This document shows positions 1 to 49,975 of a DNA stretch of 64,000 bases, one piece after another (the stretch's first letter is position 1; the number at the start of each line of letters is the position of its first letter). A program made the translations under genes and the position numbers. The stretch covers positions 1-64,000 of the forward strand of contig JAFQHV010000031.1 in the NCBI GenBank assembly GCA_017397835.1, read 5' to 3'. The notes under the pieces are model-generated. The model was not told the DNA's origin. It was given only the letters and a program-made list of their open reading frames with translations, and ran no database searches. Source of the DNA: Oscillospiraceae bacterium. GTDB lineage: Bacteria > Bacillota > Clostridia > Oscillospirales > Oscillospiraceae.

Positions 1-2744
1 AGGAGCAGGACTGGCTGCTCATGTTCAAGAACGAGACTCACAACCACCCCACGGAGATTGAGCCCTTCGGCGGCGCCGCCACCTGTATCGGCGGCTGCAT
101 CCGCGATCCCCTGTCCGGCCGTGTCTATGTCCATCAGGCCATGCGTGTCACCGGCGGCGGTGATCCCCGTGTCCCCTTTGACCAGACCACTCCCGGCAAG
201 CTGCCCCAGCGTAAGCTGGCCACCACCGCAGCCGCCGGCTACTCCTCCTACGGCAACCAGATCGGTCTTGCCACCGGTCACGTGGCCGAGGTCTATCACG
301 AGGGCTTTATCGCCAAGCGTCTGGAGTGCGGCGCCGTCATCGGTGCCGCCCCCGCCGAGAACGTCCGCCGCGAGCGGCCCGCGCCCGGTGACGTGGTCGT
401 TCTGCTGGGTGGCCGCACCGGCCGCGACGGCATCGGCGGTGCCACCGGTTCCTCCAAGAGCCACAACATGAAGTCCCTGACCACCATGGCTTCCGAGGTG
501 CAGAAGGGCAACGCTCCCGAGGAGCGCAAGATCCAGCGCCTGTTCCGCAACGGCGAGGTCACCCGGCTCATCAAGCGCTGCAACGACTTCGGCGCCGGCG
601 GCGTGTCCGTTGCCATCGGCGAGCTGGCCGACGGTCTGACCATCGACCTGGACGCCGTGCGCAAGAAGTACGACGGCCTGGACGGCACCGAGCTTGCCAT
701 CTCCGAGTCTCAGGAGCGTATGGCCGTTGTGGTCGCCCCCGAGGATGCCGACAAATTCATTGCCGCCGCCGAGGCCGAGAATCTGGAAGCCTACCGCGTG
801 GCCGTGGTCACCGAGTCCCCCCGCATGGTCATGCACTGGAAGGGCAACAAGATCGCCGACCTGTCCCGTGCGTTCCTGAACACCAACGGCGCCGTCAAGC
901 ATGCCGCCGTGTCCGTGGCCGCCAAGGACCGCGCCCTCATGAGCGCCCCCCGCTTTGCCAACCTGCGTGAGATGGCCTCCAGCCTGAAGTGCGCCAGCCG
1001 CCGCGGTTTGACCGAGCGATTCGATGGCTCCATCGGTGCCGGCTCTGTGCTGATGCCCTTCGGCGGTGCGACCCAGACCTCTCCCGCTCAGGCCATGGCC
1101 GCCCTGTTCCCCGTCCTGCCCGGTCAGGAGACCGATCAGGCCAGCATCATGTCCTGGGGTTTTGATCCCGAACTGACCTGCGTGGACCCCTATGCCGGTG
1201 CCCGCGCCAGTGTTTATACCTCCATGGCCAAGCTGGTGGCCGCCGGCGGCGACTACCGCAAGGCTTACCTGACCTTCCAGGAGTTCTTTGAGAAGCTGCG
1301 CACCGAGCCCGAGCGTTGGGGCAAGCCCTTCTCCGCCCTGCTGGGCGCTCTGGACGCTCAGCTGGAGCTGGGTGCCGCCGCCATCGGCGGTAAGGACTCC
1401 ATGTCCGGCTCCTTCCTTGACATGGACGTGCCTCCCACCCTCATCTCCTTCGCCATCGCCCCCGTCAAGGCTGGCAAGGTCCTGTCCACCGAGTTCAAGA
1501 AGGCGGGCAATCCCGTCTACCTCTTCCACACCGCCGACAGCAAGACCGCCTGGGAGTGCTTCCACGCGCTGCACACCGCCGGTAAGATCAAGGCCGCCTG
1601 GGCCGTGGAGAACGGTGTGGCCGAGGCCGTGATGAATATGTCCTTCGGCAACCGCATCGGCTTCCAGGCCGGTATGGAGGATGCCCCCTGGTATGCCTCC
1701 TGCCCCGGTGCCATCGTGGCCGAGGTCACCGAGGAGGTCAACTGCACCTGCGCCAAGCGCATCGGTGAGACCACCGAGGCTCCCTTCATTGCCCTGCCCG
1801 GCGAGGCGGTTTCCATCGAGGAACTGCTCAAGCTGAATGAGGACGTGCTGGAAGGCGTGTATGCCACCCGTGCCGGCGAGGCCGAGGCCGTGGCCGCCCC
1901 CTCCTGCGACAAGCGCGCCCCCGTGGTGGCCAAGAGCAAGATCGCCCGCCCCAAGGCGGTCATCCCCGTCTTCCCCGGCACCAACTGCGAGTACGACACC
2001 GCCCGCGCCTGCGAGCGCGCCGGCATCGCCCCCGAGATCGTGGTGGTGCGTAACCTGACTACCGAGTTCCTGGCCGAGTCTGCCAAGGCGCTGGAATCCG
2101 CCATCCGTTCCGCGCAGATGGTGGTCCTGCCCGGCGGCTTCTCCGGCGGCGACGAGCCCGAGGGTTCCGGCAAGTTCATTGCCTCCTTCCTGCGCTCCCC
2201 CGCCTTGAGCGATGCCATCATGGACCTGCTCAAGAACCGCGACGGTCTGATGCTGGGTATCTGCAACGGCTTCCAGGCACTGGTCAAGCTGGGCCTTGTC
2301 CCCTTCGGCGAGATCTGCCCCATGGACGACACCTGCCCCACCCTGACCTACAACCTCATCGGCCGCCACCAGAGCCGCTACGTCACCACCCGCGTGGCCA
2401 GCGTTCAGTCCCCCTGGATGCTCAAGTCCAACGTGGACGACCTGCACACCATCCCCATCTCCCACGGCGAGGGCCGCTTCGTCGGTCCCAAGGAGGTCAT
2501 CGACCGCCTGATCGCCAACGGTCAGGTGGCCACCCAGTACGTGGACGAGCAGGGCAAGCCCTCCATGGACATCGCCCATAACCCCAACGGCTCCATGCAG
2601 GCCATCGAGGGCATCTTCTCCCCCGACGGCCGCGTGTTCGGCAAGATGGGCCATCTGGAGCGCCGCGGCGAGTTTGTCGGCGTGAACATCCCCGGCAACA
2701 AGCACCAGCCTCTGTTCGAGTCCGGCGCCGAGTACTTCAAGTAA
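1..2744 (+). CDS. purL: Phosphoribosylformylglycinamidine synthase, 3' part (5' end outside window)
   Basis: The product converts FGAR, glutamine and ATP to FGAM in de novo purine synthesis in the cytoplasm. The reading frame is open from base 3, upstream of the first ATG at 21, so the gene is cut by the window edge rather than starting here. The synthetase signature KNETHNHPTEIEPFGG lies at the very start. A C-terminal class I glutaminase domain follows from about base 1960, with PGTNCEYD, the nucleophile Cys in GICNGF (near 2262) and the HGEGR motif near 2464. This is the long fused PurL in which synthetase and glutaminase share one chain; about 913 codons are visible. A terminator follows immediately, so it ends its transcript. 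No purine neighbour is seen downstream. Confidence 0.97.
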   Translation, partial: EQDWLLMFKNETHNHPTEIEPFGGAATCIGGCIRDPLSGRVYVHQAMRVTGGGDPRVPFDQTTPGKLPQRKLATTAAAGYSSYGNQIGLATGHVAEVYHEGFIAKRLECGAVIGAAPAENVRRERPAPGDVVVLLGGRTGRDGIGGATGSSKSHNMKSLTTMASEVQKGNAPEERKIQRLFRNGEVTRLIKRCNDFGAGGVSVAIGELADGLTIDLDAVRKKYDGLDGTELAISESQERMAVVVAPEDADKFIAAAEAENLEAYRVAVVTESPRMVMHWKGNKIADLSRAFLNTNGAVKHAAVSVAAKDRALMSAPRFANLREMASSLKCASRRGLTERFDGSIGAGSVLMPFGGATQTSPAQAMAALFPVLPGQETDQASIMSWGFDPELTCVDPYAGARASVYTSMAKLVAAGGDYRKAYLTFQEFFEKLRTEPERWGKPFSALLGALDAQLELGAAAIGGKDSMSGSFLDMDVPPTLISFAIAPVKAGKVLSTEFKKAGNPVYLFHTADSKTAWECFHALHTAGKIKAAWAVENGVAEAVMNMSFGNRIGFQAGMEDAPWYASCPGAIVAEVTEEVNCTCAKRIGETTEAPFIALPGEAVSIEELLKLNEDVLEGVYATRAGEAEAVAAPSCDKRAPVVAKSKIARPKAVIPVFPGTNCEYDTARACERAGIAPEIVVVRNLTTEFLAESAKALESAIRSAQMVVLPGGFSGGDEPEGSGKFIASFLRSPALSDAIMDLLKNRDGLMLGICNGFQALVKLGLVPFGEICPMDDTCPTLTYNLIGRHQSRYVTTRVASVQSPWMLKSNVDDLHTIPISHGEGRFVGPKEVIDRLIANGQVATQYVDEQGKPSMDIAHNPNGSMQAIEGIFSPDGRVFGKMGHLERRGEFVGVNIPGNKHQPLFESGAEYFK

Positions 2745-2758
2745 TTCCCCAAAAACAA

Positions 2759-2796
2759 ATCCCGGTCCCTCAACGAGGGGCCGGGATTTTTCTTCT
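2759..2796 (+). terminator. Intrinsic terminator of purL
   Basis: A GC-rich hairpin whose arms include atcccgg and ccgggat is followed by a T run, 15 bases after the purL stop. Confidence 0.85.
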
Positions 2797-2807
2797 TTAT
2801 ACAGGAT

Positions 2808-3340
2808 TTGCCCTGCGGGGCGGGATAGGACGAGGGTTGTTCCGCCCCCGGGCGGGTGTCTTTTGTCCCGCCACAAAAGACACGAAAAAGGCGCATAGAA
2901 ACCCATGGTTTCTATGTACTTCCTTTGGGCAACCTCTGTGGGGGCACACCCACACGGTCGGCGGACATATCTGACCCTGCCTACTCCGATTAGGCTGCCG
3001 CACTCTGTGCCATCTGTGAATTGTTGTGTCTAACGAACTCCCGCCGACTTGTACCGCGGAAACGAAACACCCACCGCAGTAGGCGCCTTTGTGTGATAGG
3101 AGTACAACTTGGTTGATGCTTGGCAGGGCGACAGCCTAAAGCCGCAACGTGGTGTCGTCGTCGGTGCGCCGAACGCAAGGAACATCTACCGCTTACGAGC
3201 CGTTATCCTTGGGGTCCGGGGCGCGGCGTGTTTGAGATGCAGGCGCGAAGTGCCGAATCTCATCCACTCAAACCCCGGTGGCGTTTTGGGTACTTTGCCG
3301 CCACGGGCAAAGTACCTCGCCCCACAGGGCGAAATAAAAA
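2808..3340 (+). repeat. Dispersed ~0.53 kb structured non-coding repeat, copy A
   Basis: This stretch has no credible gene. Its reverse complement occurs at 49453-49975 (copy B), alignable from end to end with many substitutions and small indels. It holds several perfect hairpins: ccgccc/gggcgg at 2842-2855, an 11-bp stem at 2856-2883, a 10-bp stem with a 3-base loop at 2894-2916, an 11-bp stem at 3289-3316, and tcgccc/gggcga near 3317-3332. In the 2894 and 3289 stems the two copies differ by paired changes on both arms. Short open frames here have no ribosome-binding sites or recognisable domains. The strand label is arbitrary. It could be a non-autonomous mobile element or a structured RNA; that choice is unresolved. 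Confidence 0.85.
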
Positions 3341-3363
3341 CGCTCCCGAAACAATCGGGAGCG
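3338..3363 (-). terminator. Terminator of the small XRE regulator gene
   Basis: Read on the minus strand, a 9-bp stem (cgctcccga/tcgggagcg) with a short loop is followed by a T run, directly after the stop codon at 3365. It abuts the end of repeat copy A. Confidence 0.85.
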
Positions 3364-3364
3364 T

Positions 3365-3571
3365 TTACTCATTATCAGGGATATAAGTTGCCACATCCTC
3401 TAATCTGCAATCCAATAGCTGGCACAGTTTGTTTAAGGTGTGGGTAGAAACAGGCATATCGTTTTGCAACCGCTGCACGGTAGCATGACTGATGCCGTAT
3501 TTGATGCGCAAGGTATAGGTGGTGGCCTTTTTTGCGGCCATGGTTTTCCACAAGGGTGCATAGGTAATCAT
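3365..3571 (-). CDS. Small Cro/C1-type helix-turn-helix regulator (68 aa)
   Basis: This is a single-domain XRE-like DNA-binding protein. The HTH spans about residues 15-60, with the recognition-helix region around SHATVQRLQND and the following helix STHTLNKLCQLLDC. The length is typical of stand-alone Cro/C1-like (HTH_26-type) regulators. The start is supported by a ribosome-binding site aggggag six bases upstream. It is divergent from a 54-aa ribbon-helix-helix gene; the shared ~115-base intergenic region carries tandem dyads, so one or both proteins may bind there. No target or phenotype can be read from the sequence. Confidence 0.8.
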   Translation of the reverse strand: MITYAPLWKTMAAKKATTYTLRIKYGISHATVQRLQNDMPVSTHTLNKLCQLLDCRLEDVATYIPDNE

Positions 3572-3597
3572 GGCAATCTCCCCTTTACACCCATTAT

Positions 3598-3643
3598 TAT
3601 GGCTGATATAATGGCCATATAATATGGCTATTATTTAGCCATA
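3598..3643. promoter_or_regulatory. Tandem operator-like dyads with two -10 boxes
   Basis: Four half-sites of the hexamer tatggc form two consecutive inverted repeats: tatggc at 3598 with gccata at 3614, and tatggcta at 3623 with tagccata at 3636 (perfect 8-bp arms, 5-base spacer). TATAAT boxes lie at 3607-3612 and 3618-3623. The arrangement sits between two divergent DNA-binding protein genes and looks like an autoregulated promoter; the binding protein is inferred. Confidence 0.6.
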
Positions 3644-3690
3644 CAAAGAGGCGGCGTGCCTGGATTGCGGGAGAGAGGTGAATATCGGTG

Positions 3691-3855
3691 ATGAGAGGAG
3701 CAAAGAAAACAGTTAGTCTGATTTTACCGCAGGAAACGTACGATAAGCTGAAACGTTTGGCAAATGAGGACTACCGCAGTGTTCCGAGTTACCTGCGGGT
3801 GATGATAAATAACAATTTGCGACGATTGGAGTCTGCACCTAAGGAAAACGACTGA
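3691..3855 (+). CDS. Small ribbon-helix-helix (CopG/Arc-type) DNA-binding protein (54 aa)
   Basis: The frame runs from ATG 3691 to TGA 3853-3855, with a possible GTG start one codon earlier. A purine-rich ribosome-binding site (gagagaggtg) lies upstream. The protein shows the RHH pattern: a basic N-terminus, a beta strand TVSLILPQ, helix A ETYDKLKRLANEDY and helix B SVPSYLRVMINNNL, then a short tail. Such proteins dimerise and bind DNA through the strand pair, often as antitoxins or copy-number and partition regulators. No toxin gene is adjacent; the only partner is the divergent 68-aa XRE protein. It is below the usual length cut-off of gene finders. Confidence 0.75.
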   Translation: MRGAKKTVSLILPQETYDKLKRLANEDYRSVPSYLRVMINNNLRRLESAPKEND

Positions 3856-3894
3856 AAAACACCCCCGACCATTCGGTCGGGGGTGTTTGGTTTT
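3855..3894. terminator. Bidirectional terminator between RHH gene and groEL
   Basis: A 12-bp perfect stem (acacccccgacc/ggtcgggggtgt, 4-base loop) is flanked by A and T runs on both sides, so it can serve both converging genes. Confidence 0.9.
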
Positions 3895-3908
3895 ATGGGT
3901 TGTACGGT

Positions 3909-5564
<1,656 letters not shown>

Positions 5565-49452: not shown

Positions 49453-49975
49453 TTTTGTTTCGCCCGGCAGGGCGACCTACTTTGCCCGTGGCGGCAAAGT
49501 AGGCAAAACGCCACCGGGGTTTGCGTGGATGAGATTGGACACTGCGTGTCTGCATCTCAAACACGCCGCACCCCGGACCCCAAGGAGAACGGCTCGTAAT
49601 CCCAAGTCATTCCGCACGTCCGGCGCACCGATGACGACACCACGTTGCAACTTTAGGCTACCGCCCCTCGGTAATACAATCGGGTTTCCCTCCTACCGCA
49701 CAAAGGCGCCTGCTGCGGTGGGTGTTTCGTTCCTGCGGTGTAAGTCGGCGGCTTTCGTTAGACGAGCAAAATTACAGAGGGTACAGAGTGCGACAGCCTA
49801 ATCGGCGCTGAACGGGTCAGAAGTGTCCGCCGACCGTGTGGGTGTGACCCCACGGAGTTGCCCAAAGGAAGTTTTAAGAAACCATGGGTTTCTTAATGCC
49901 TTTTTCGCGTCTTTTGTGGCAAGACAAAAGACACCCGCCCAAGGGCGGAACAACCCCGTCCGCTTCGCAGGGCAA
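49453..49975 (-). repeat. Dispersed ~0.53 kb structured non-coding repeat, copy B (inverted)
   Basis: This stretch is the reverse-complement homologue of 2808-3340. Conserved blocks include a segment around 49500-49600 and another around 49700-49760. Stems seen in copy A recur: 11 bp at 49476-49503 (cctactttgcc/ggcaaagtagg) and 10 bp at 49874-49896 (ttaagaaacc/ggtttcttaa). Stem bases differ from copy A in pairs, keeping the pairing. No credible gene is encoded; short open frames here lack ribosome-binding sites. It sits just upstream of the MATE promoter. Confidence 0.85.

What the first reader, a model, noticed from the sequence alone, without database searches (positions are those of the whole stretch)
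2808..3340. Half-kilobase repeat whose hairpins covary between two copies
Copy A (2808-3340) and the inverted copy B (49453-49975) align over their full length. In the stem at 2894-2916 the outer three pairs (cat...atg) are replaced in copy B by tta...taa, changed on both arms. In the stem at 3289-3316 the outer gg...cc becomes cc...gg. That is five compensated base pairs in two separate hairpins, while a third stem (2856-2883) shows a pairing-preserving wobble and two others vary only in the loops. Selection on folded structure, not on protein, is the simplest reading. It may be a structured RNA or a hairpin-dependent mobile element with no coding capacity, and it may be widely mis-annotated as small hypothetical proteins.
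Basis: seen in the sequence. Interest (0 to 1): 0.85.

Follow-up and report, generated by a model that had tools for sequence, protein, structure and literature searches.

The report
Mobile DNA repeat with folded ends
The half-kilobase repeat is one of many copies of a non-coding, probably mobile DNA element of gut bacteria whose two outward-facing ends keep their folded hairpins while their sequence changes; the pattern fits folded DNA better than an RNA gene.

Summary
Copies A (2808-3334, +) and B (49458-49975, -) are two of 15 loci in this genome (Pseudoflavonifractor lineage); a model of the right arm matches 35 of 64 same-genus genomes, 40 or more times in seven. Each element is a pair of outward-facing arms. 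H2 covaries strongly against a tree-based null; PK does so when all arms are pooled, not in right arms alone. Stems are almost purely Watson-Crick, G-U is no commoner than A-C, and both strands fold equally well, as in DNA palindromes rather than an RNA strand. No conserved frame, Rfam match or target duplication was found; three loci are empty in relatives. Genes resembling REP-associated tyrosine transposases (RAYT), the enzymes of REPINs, occur in 17 of the 64 genomes and are associated with the repeat, but none was detected in this genome. In two complete genomes the repeat clusters at the replication origin. Best reading: an unusually large REPIN-like non-autonomous element moved through its folded ends, perhaps by RAYT.

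The parts
2808..3334 (+). Copy A, whole element (left S arm + centre + right R arm)
2810..2821 (.). outer hairpin of the left end (GCCC-TGCG-GGGC), present in only some copies
2842..2855 (.). H1 of the left (S) arm, CCGCC-CCCG-GGCGG
2856..2883 (.). H2 of the left arm: 11-bp stem 2856-2866/2873-2883, loop 2867-2872
2869..2893 (.). Left pseudoknot: loop CGCC 2869-2872 with GGCG 2890-2893; covaries across copies (CGCC/GGCG, TGCC/GGCA, CTGA/TCAG, CCAA/TTGG and others)
2894..2916 (.).
3211..3278 (.). Right (R) arm helix GGGGTCCGGGG 3211-3221 with CCCCGG 3273-3278, closing a variable hairpin
3278..3304 (.). Right pseudoknot: GTGGC 3278-3282 with loop GCCAC 3300-3304
3289..3316 (.).
3317..3334 (.). 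H1 of the right arm TCGCCC-CACA-GGGCGA followed by AA
49458..49975 (-). Copy B, whole element, inverted; absent from the same place in relative G046
49476..49503 (.). H2 of copy B's R arm; linker to 49508
49907..49934 (.). H2 of copy B's S arm; linker 49902-49906

Best explanation
Copies A and B belong to a family of non-autonomous, non-coding mobile DNA elements, mostly about 0.45-0.7 kb. Shown: complete elements are two outward-facing arms in inverted orientation; an arm ends in two hairpins and an interleaved loop-flank complementarity; stem sequences differ widely between arms but stay complementary; copies often lie beside transcription terminators, and some loci are empty in close relatives. 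Inferred: when the ends become single-stranded (for example at replication forks) each outward strand folds, and a structure-reading enzyme supplied in trans recognises the fold at both ends and moves the element, as proposed for REPINs and their RAYT enzymes. RAYT-like genes exist in the genus and go with the repeat, so RAYT is the leading candidate; no direct link is shown and none was detected in this genome.
For: 15 loci in the genome (18 matches). Adjacent end pairs within 1.1 kb: 49 outward, 1 inward, 2 same orientation. 50 end pairs: 20 R-R, 25 S-R/R-S, 5 S-S, one left end used twice. Covariation of H2 and PK; PK register control 19 of 40 distinct combinations fully paired, shuffled mean 3.5, maximum 11. 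Nearly pure Watson-Crick stems: H2 GU 5, AC 6 of 1760 cells; H1 GU 8, AC 5 of 957; variable hairpin GU 5, AC 4 of 368; 14 tRNAs as RNA control GU 10, AC 1 of 168. Empty sites: copy B in G046; the contig-37 copy in G046, G047 and G048; the contig-14 copy in G046. One end type is paired with several different partner ends in G012. RAYT-like proteins in 17 of 64 genomes; five of them tested give 57-82 bits to NF047646, cut-off 80; 14 of the 17 genomes carry R1 matches against 21 of the other 47 (Fisher P=0.010), and 12 of 12 against 23 of 52 when one RAYT subtype is left out after the fact.
Against: No autonomous copy was found; none of the 17 RAYT-like genes has an end module within the 0.2-1.5 kb of flank fetched, and no RAYT-like match at E<=0.001 appeared in G000, G010, G012 or G075 beyond IS200-like or partial ones, although three of these are among the richest in copies. 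Genes between distant arms in G012 are host genes or unmatched. No target-site duplication. Copy B's empty site is not clean: the extra stretch in G000 is about 635 bp, 117 bp more than the element. PK pairs were not significant in right arms alone. Counted per locus in right arms PK shows more G-U than A-C (20 against 6 at four positions; a fifth position reads G-T in 67 of 147), as an RNA would give. Interior motifs shared by different arm types (AGGCGC, GGCAGC, CCCGTAA; read) are unexplained.
Confidence: 0.6

Rival explanations
1. A structured non-coding RNA gene family (large RNA such as OLE, ROOL or HEARO, or one RNA per arm read outwards) that has spread through the genome; covariation reflects RNA folding.
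For: Compensatory changes in hairpins and a pseudoknot; conserved short motifs in the R-arm interior; per-locus G-U excess in the right-arm pseudoknot.
Against: G-U is not above A-C in stems while tRNAs of the same fetched DNA show 10 to 1; nearly equal consensus energy on both strands; R-R elements are inverted pairs, so no single strand carries both arms in the same sense; in one subfamily's R-arm interior only 1 of 32 predicted pairs was significant; no Rfam match at gathering.
Confidence: 0.17
2. Passive palindrome upkeep: imperfect hairpins in DNA are corrected by template switching or arm-to-arm conversion, giving perfect covarying stems without selection for a fold; copies spread by homologous recombination or an extinct mobiliser.
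For: Stems are almost perfectly Watson-Crick with A-C as rare as G-U; arms are shuffled between elements; no target duplication.
Against: The pseudoknot partners lie across a stem and still covary in register; end modules keep spacing, CTTT/AAAG core, linker and orientation in several genera.
Confidence: 0.14
3. A host-used chromosomal site: binding platform for a nucleoid, replication or segregation protein, concentrated near oriC.
For: In complete genome G012 38 of 43 end-pattern matches lie within 150 kb of dnaA (25 of 29 loci), one element between dnaA and dnaN; in G011 6 of 10 lie within 100 kb; none in six 20-kb control stretches of G012.
Against: 29 of 64 genus genomes have no R1 match; in complete genome G007 one of its two R1 matches lies near 1.50 of 3.67 Mb; of 14 queries from the own genome (13 loci and the window) only 3, on two contigs and one of them weak, had a gene matching the G012 origin region, the window none.
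Confidence: 0.08

Closest known systems
REPINs (inverted REP doublets mobilised by RAYT tyrosine transposases)
   Same: Non-coding, extragenic, high copy, two palindromic units in inverted orientation around a spacer, structure in single-stranded DNA proposed to matter (outline and abstract of PMC3116915 seen); RAYT-like genes present in 17 of 64 genus genomes.
   Different: Several times longer (REPIN size recalled), two or three hairpins plus a pseudoknot per end, no constant tag seen, stems free to vary, RAYT-like genes not beside the repeats in the short flanks fetched and none detected in this genome.
MITEs
   Same: Short non-autonomous intergenic elements with inverted ends and many copies; PMC10969869 seen as a listing only.
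   Different: The two ends share architecture but often not sequence; no target-site duplication; no parent transposon found.
ERIC/IRU, BOX, RUP and similar palindromic repeats (recalled)
   Same: Intergenic imperfect palindromes predicted to fold, mobility unclear.
   Different: Larger, modular arms with covarying pseudoknotted ends, in another bacterial group.
Large bacterial structured RNAs (OLE, GOLLD, ROOL, HEARO)
   Same: About 0.5 kb or more, intricate predicted structure, no coding (search listing only).
   Different: No Rfam match, no strand-specific folding signature in stems, inverted mirrored ends.

Membership tests
REPIN / REP-RAYT system | two palindromic units in inverted orientation forming one unit | tested here: met
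   49 outward against 1 inward and 2 same-orientation adjacent end pairs
REPIN / REP-RAYT system | associated RAYT in the genome | tested here: inconclusive
   RAYT-like genes in 17 of 64 genomes and associated with the repeat; none at E<=0.001 in G000 or G010, but PF01797 scores this family at only about 20-40 bits, so misses are likely; not beside the repeats in the flanks fetched
REPIN / REP-RAYT system | short REP palindrome with conserved tag such as GTAG (recalled) | tested here: not met
   end modules show no constant tag beyond a TTT linker and CTTT/AAAG core
MITE of a DDE transposon | terminal inverted repeats of shared sequence matching a parent transposon | tested here: inconclusive
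   H1 is often similar at both ends but H2 and PK often differ; parents not searched
MITE of a DDE transposon | target-site duplication | tested here: not met
   longest shared flank word mean 5.96 in 52 elements against 5.82 in 300 mixed pairs
Structured RNA family (Rfam-like) | covarying pairs beyond phylogeny | tested here: met
   H2 7 of 7 variable pairs and PK 2 of 4 core pairs at E=0 in 100 nulls; PK none at E<=0.05 in right arms alone
Structured RNA family (Rfam-like) | strand-specific fold (G-U wobble, better energy on one strand) | tested here: not met
   per-locus PK counts in right arms point the other way
Structured RNA family (Rfam-like) | transcription | not testable with these tools
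   no expression data available
Known Rfam families incl. HEARO and group II introns | score above gathering | tested here: not met
   0 matches in 64 kb; best sub-threshold hit near copy A 21.2 bits against 80

The most novel reading that the evidence does not exclude
A giant relative of REPINs whose ends are recognised by folded single-strand shape (hairpin plus pseudoknot) rather than sequence, so that left and right ends can drift and be swapped freely, with insertion tied to newly replicated DNA near the chromosome origin.
Probability: 0.2. Interest if true: 0.8.

Novelty: new variant of a known kind. Interest (0 to 1): 0.6.

Why it matters
If right, shape rather than sequence defines the ends of an abundant mobile element, so its sequence can drift while it stays mobile, which would explain why sequence searches see mainly fragments in relatives. 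It supplies many natural variants of one DNA fold for testing structure-directed transposition, a candidate enzyme family in the same genus, and an origin-centred distribution in two genomes that could link mobility to replication. It also warns that compensatory base changes in a bacterial repeat do not by themselves show a structured RNA.

Tried and rejected
Rfam: nothing at gathering; 14 sub-threshold hits around copy A taken as chance. Search of viral contigs with the R-arm pattern: 0 matches. Plasmid and phage records, blastn with copy A: no match. Long intervals between facing arms as possible autonomous copies: ORF lists of L200 and L098 showed no transposase that I recognised by reading; of ten ORFs tested in G012 six are host metabolism, sulfatase-domain or replication genes and four had no Pfam family. 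Interior of one R-arm subfamily: only 2 column pairs significant, 1 of them predicted. Target duplications: none. An early reading as a large RNA (about) was dropped after the strand tests. A first conclusion that Y1 enzymes are not involved was withdrawn on re-checking: the 17 weak PF01797 matches are one RAYT-like family; for this I raised the main confidence from 0.58 to 0.60, lowered the passive rival from 0.15 to 0.14, and reworded the novel case and lowered it from 0.25 to 0.20. Seven literature searches listed no paper that I recognised as describing this repeat; only PMC3116915 (outline and abstract) and passages of PMC2267715 were opened. Supplements and preprints were not searchable, so absence from print is not established. 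Two pattern searches were mis-spaced and discarded.

Full report
What is there. Copy A and copy B are real and align over their whole length at 82% identity with two 1-nt indels. The own genome (G000, 1.84 Mb in 43 contigs) gives 18 matches that fall into 15 loci: complete copies, half copies broken near query position 250, and copies with nested insertions. A sequence search of 40 relatives saw mainly the last 64 bases, in 9 genomes. It also matched 36 of 300 genomes of the family, in 19 of 106 genera, many of these matches being end modules only. A pattern scan of named genomes gave 54 stretches, titled Pseudoflavonifractor (capillosus An827, phocaeensis An858 and An901, sp. An184), Clostridiales bacterium CCNA10, Oscillospiraceae assemblies and uncultured bacteria; records of or very near the window's genome may have been left out there.

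Anatomy. Reading upstream of the right end in relatives and scanning loci for the end module shows that the unit is a pair of outward-facing ends. Adjacent end pairs within 1.1 kb were outward 49 times, inward once and same-orientation twice. 50 end pairs were found (one left end of L090 used twice) with a pattern that needs a CTTT/AAAG core, a 6-7 nt loop and at least 3 of 4 PK pairs, so variants are missed: 20 R-R, 25 S-R or R-S, 5 S-S, 349-972 nt. Copies A and B are S-R. From outside in, an end has H1 (147 distinct H1 hairpins were recognised from 242 ends: closing pair T-A in 97, C-G in 43; followed by AAC or AAT in 134), then H2 (11 bp), then a TTT/AAA linker and a segment that pairs with the H2 loop. 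Left and right ends are mirror images. In complete genome G012 the same end type occurs with different partners, so arms are exchanged.

Covariation. The tests used a home-made G-test with average-product correction and null alignments evolved on the FastTree tree. For 160 arms chosen on stem pairing only, all 7 variable H2 pairs had E=0 in 100 nulls; PK pairs had E=0, 0, 0.5 and 0.06; two couplings between neighbouring stem positions were also significant. For 123 right arms chosen with no pairing requirement, 6 H2 pairs were significant plus the same 2 couplings; no PK pair was. The PK register control gave 19 of 40 distinct combinations fully paired in register, shuffled mean 3.5, maximum 11. 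Left ends of one stem type found without a PK filter: 33 of 36 fully paired, 3 at three of four positions, 12 distinct combinations. The tool's own counts agree: 98.6% paired cells on A1, whose 20 rows were picked by a sequence pattern that fixes much of H2 and PK, and 99.0% against 71.3% shuffled on A2, whose rows came from ends filtered for pairing, with all 3 PK pairs changed on both sides somewhere. For 15 full-length own-type copies only two pairs reached E<=0.05. For the R-arm interior of one subfamily (106 candidates, 81 distinct sequences passing the core pattern, 77 after near-duplicates were removed) only 2 column pairs were significant, 1 of them among 32 predicted.

RNA or DNA. In a working RNA, G-U wobble should exceed A-C, its mirror on the other strand. 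In stems it does not: H2 5 and 6 of 1760 cells, PK 7 and 6 of 160 in distinct combinations; H1 8 and 5 of 957; the variable hairpin 5 and 4 of 368. Fourteen tRNA genes from the fetched DNA show 10 and 1 of 168. G-U is rarer in H1+H2 than in tRNA stems (Fisher P=2e-7), and the G-U to A-C ratio of 25 to 21 differs from 10 to 1 at P=0.04. RNAalifold gives -301.8 on one strand and -298.1 on the other. Against this, right-arm PK counted per locus shows 20 G-U against 6 A-C, and at a fifth position G-T in 67 of 147. I weigh the whole as pointing to DNA palindromes folded in single-stranded or cruciform form, not as proof.

Coding. The longest stop-free runs differ between 15 copies and strands (51-165 codons), two single-base indels separate A and B, and two ORFs within or overlapping copy A match no Pfam family. 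No conserved frame is seen.

Mobility. Copy B's place is empty in G046, while G045 has a half copy in the opposite orientation there; the extra stretch in G000 is about 635 bp, more than the element, so that site is not clean. The contig-37 copy is missing between matching flanks in G046, G047 and G048, and the contig-14 copy in G046. Other copies share flanks between species (L002/L121; L005/L116/L119). Of 52 complete elements 25 have an inward-pointing terminator-like site within 150 nt and 13 an outward one, against 70 and 59 of 600 random placements. No target-site duplication was found.

Enzyme. A Y1 transposase model (PF01797) matches 30 of 64 genus genomes, none in G000 or G010 at E<=0.001. 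Seventeen genomes have weak matches that prove to be one protein family: all 17 find each other by blastp and carry MPNHVH-like and YI..NP motifs (motif meaning recalled), and five of them, tested, give 57-82 bits to NF047646, REP-associated tyrosine transposase, cut-off 80. 14 of the 17 genomes have R1 matches against 21 of the other 47 (P=0.010); leaving out five of one subtype, a split made after seeing the data, 12 of 12 against 23 of 52 (P=0.0003); phylogeny is not controlled. Four of the seven richest genomes carry a detected RAYT-like gene. None of the 17 genes has an end module in the short flank fetched; in the held DNA one lies about 4 kb from an R arm in a P. phocaeensis contig (L204) and another RAYT-like match about 1.6 kb from an end-pattern match in G011. 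The window and the rest of its contig held here gave no RAYT-like match.

Origin clustering. Contig C1 of G012 starts with dnaA, followed by dnaN, recF and gyrB (named by reading). 38 of 43 end-pattern matches lie within 150 kb of it (25 of 29 loci), and one element sits between dnaA and dnaN; six 20-kb control stretches have none. G011 also starts with homologues of that dnaA and dnaN; 6 of its 10 matches lie within 100 kb (binomial P=5e-6). Complete genome G007 has no end-pattern match and two R1 matches, one near 1.50 of 3.67 Mb; G017 has 5 scattered pattern matches with its origin not located. Of 14 queries from G000 (13 loci and the window, which holds A and B) three had a gene matching the G012 origin region, one weakly, and the window none. 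So the clustering is strong in two genomes and not general.

Judgement. The finding is a real and unusually elaborate repeat family. It works like a REPIN in anatomy and spread, and RAYT-like genes occur in its genus, but the REP tag is not met and the RAYT link is unproved, so I call it REPIN-like and do not file it as a member. The mechanism (structure-read ends, enzyme in trans) is inferred.

Noticed in passing
G012:C1 (L311-L324), around dnaA: The elements crowd around the replication origin of a complete genome (38 of 43 end-pattern matches within 150 kb); one lies between dnaA and dnaN. A second complete genome, G011, shows a weaker version.
   Followed up: partly
L334, L335, L337-L351: A family of RAYT-like proteins in 17 of 64 genus genomes, in two subtypes by reading; one subtype was seen only in genomes with the repeat.
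   Followed up: partly
L007, L033, L046, L047, L055, L056: A second small repeat (GACTCCCCCTgTCAGGGGGAG...GAGGGGGTAGGG) is nested at the same point of the R-arm hairpin in several genomes.
   Followed up: no
L113, L118, L120; L007, L114, L118: Two further nested insertion points in own-type copies, holding GTAGGGGCGG...CCGCCCCTAC hairpin repeats and a 57-nt insert; the first lies where half copies break off.
   Followed up: partly
L006 flanks compared with L307: At the contig-37 site the element lies between two similar terminator hairpins, while the empty site in a relative has one; it looks like a duplicated terminator.
   Followed up: no
window 1800-4400 against G046:C1: The two flanks of copy A lie about 29 kb apart and in opposite orientation in G046, so this locus is also a rearrangement breakpoint; element remnants sit near G046:C1:70155-70286.
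   Followed up: no
window 3365-3571 (-): A 68-aa Cro/C1-type HTH gene (PF13443) lies directly downstream of copy A, convergent with the PurL-like gene 21-2744.
   Followed up: no
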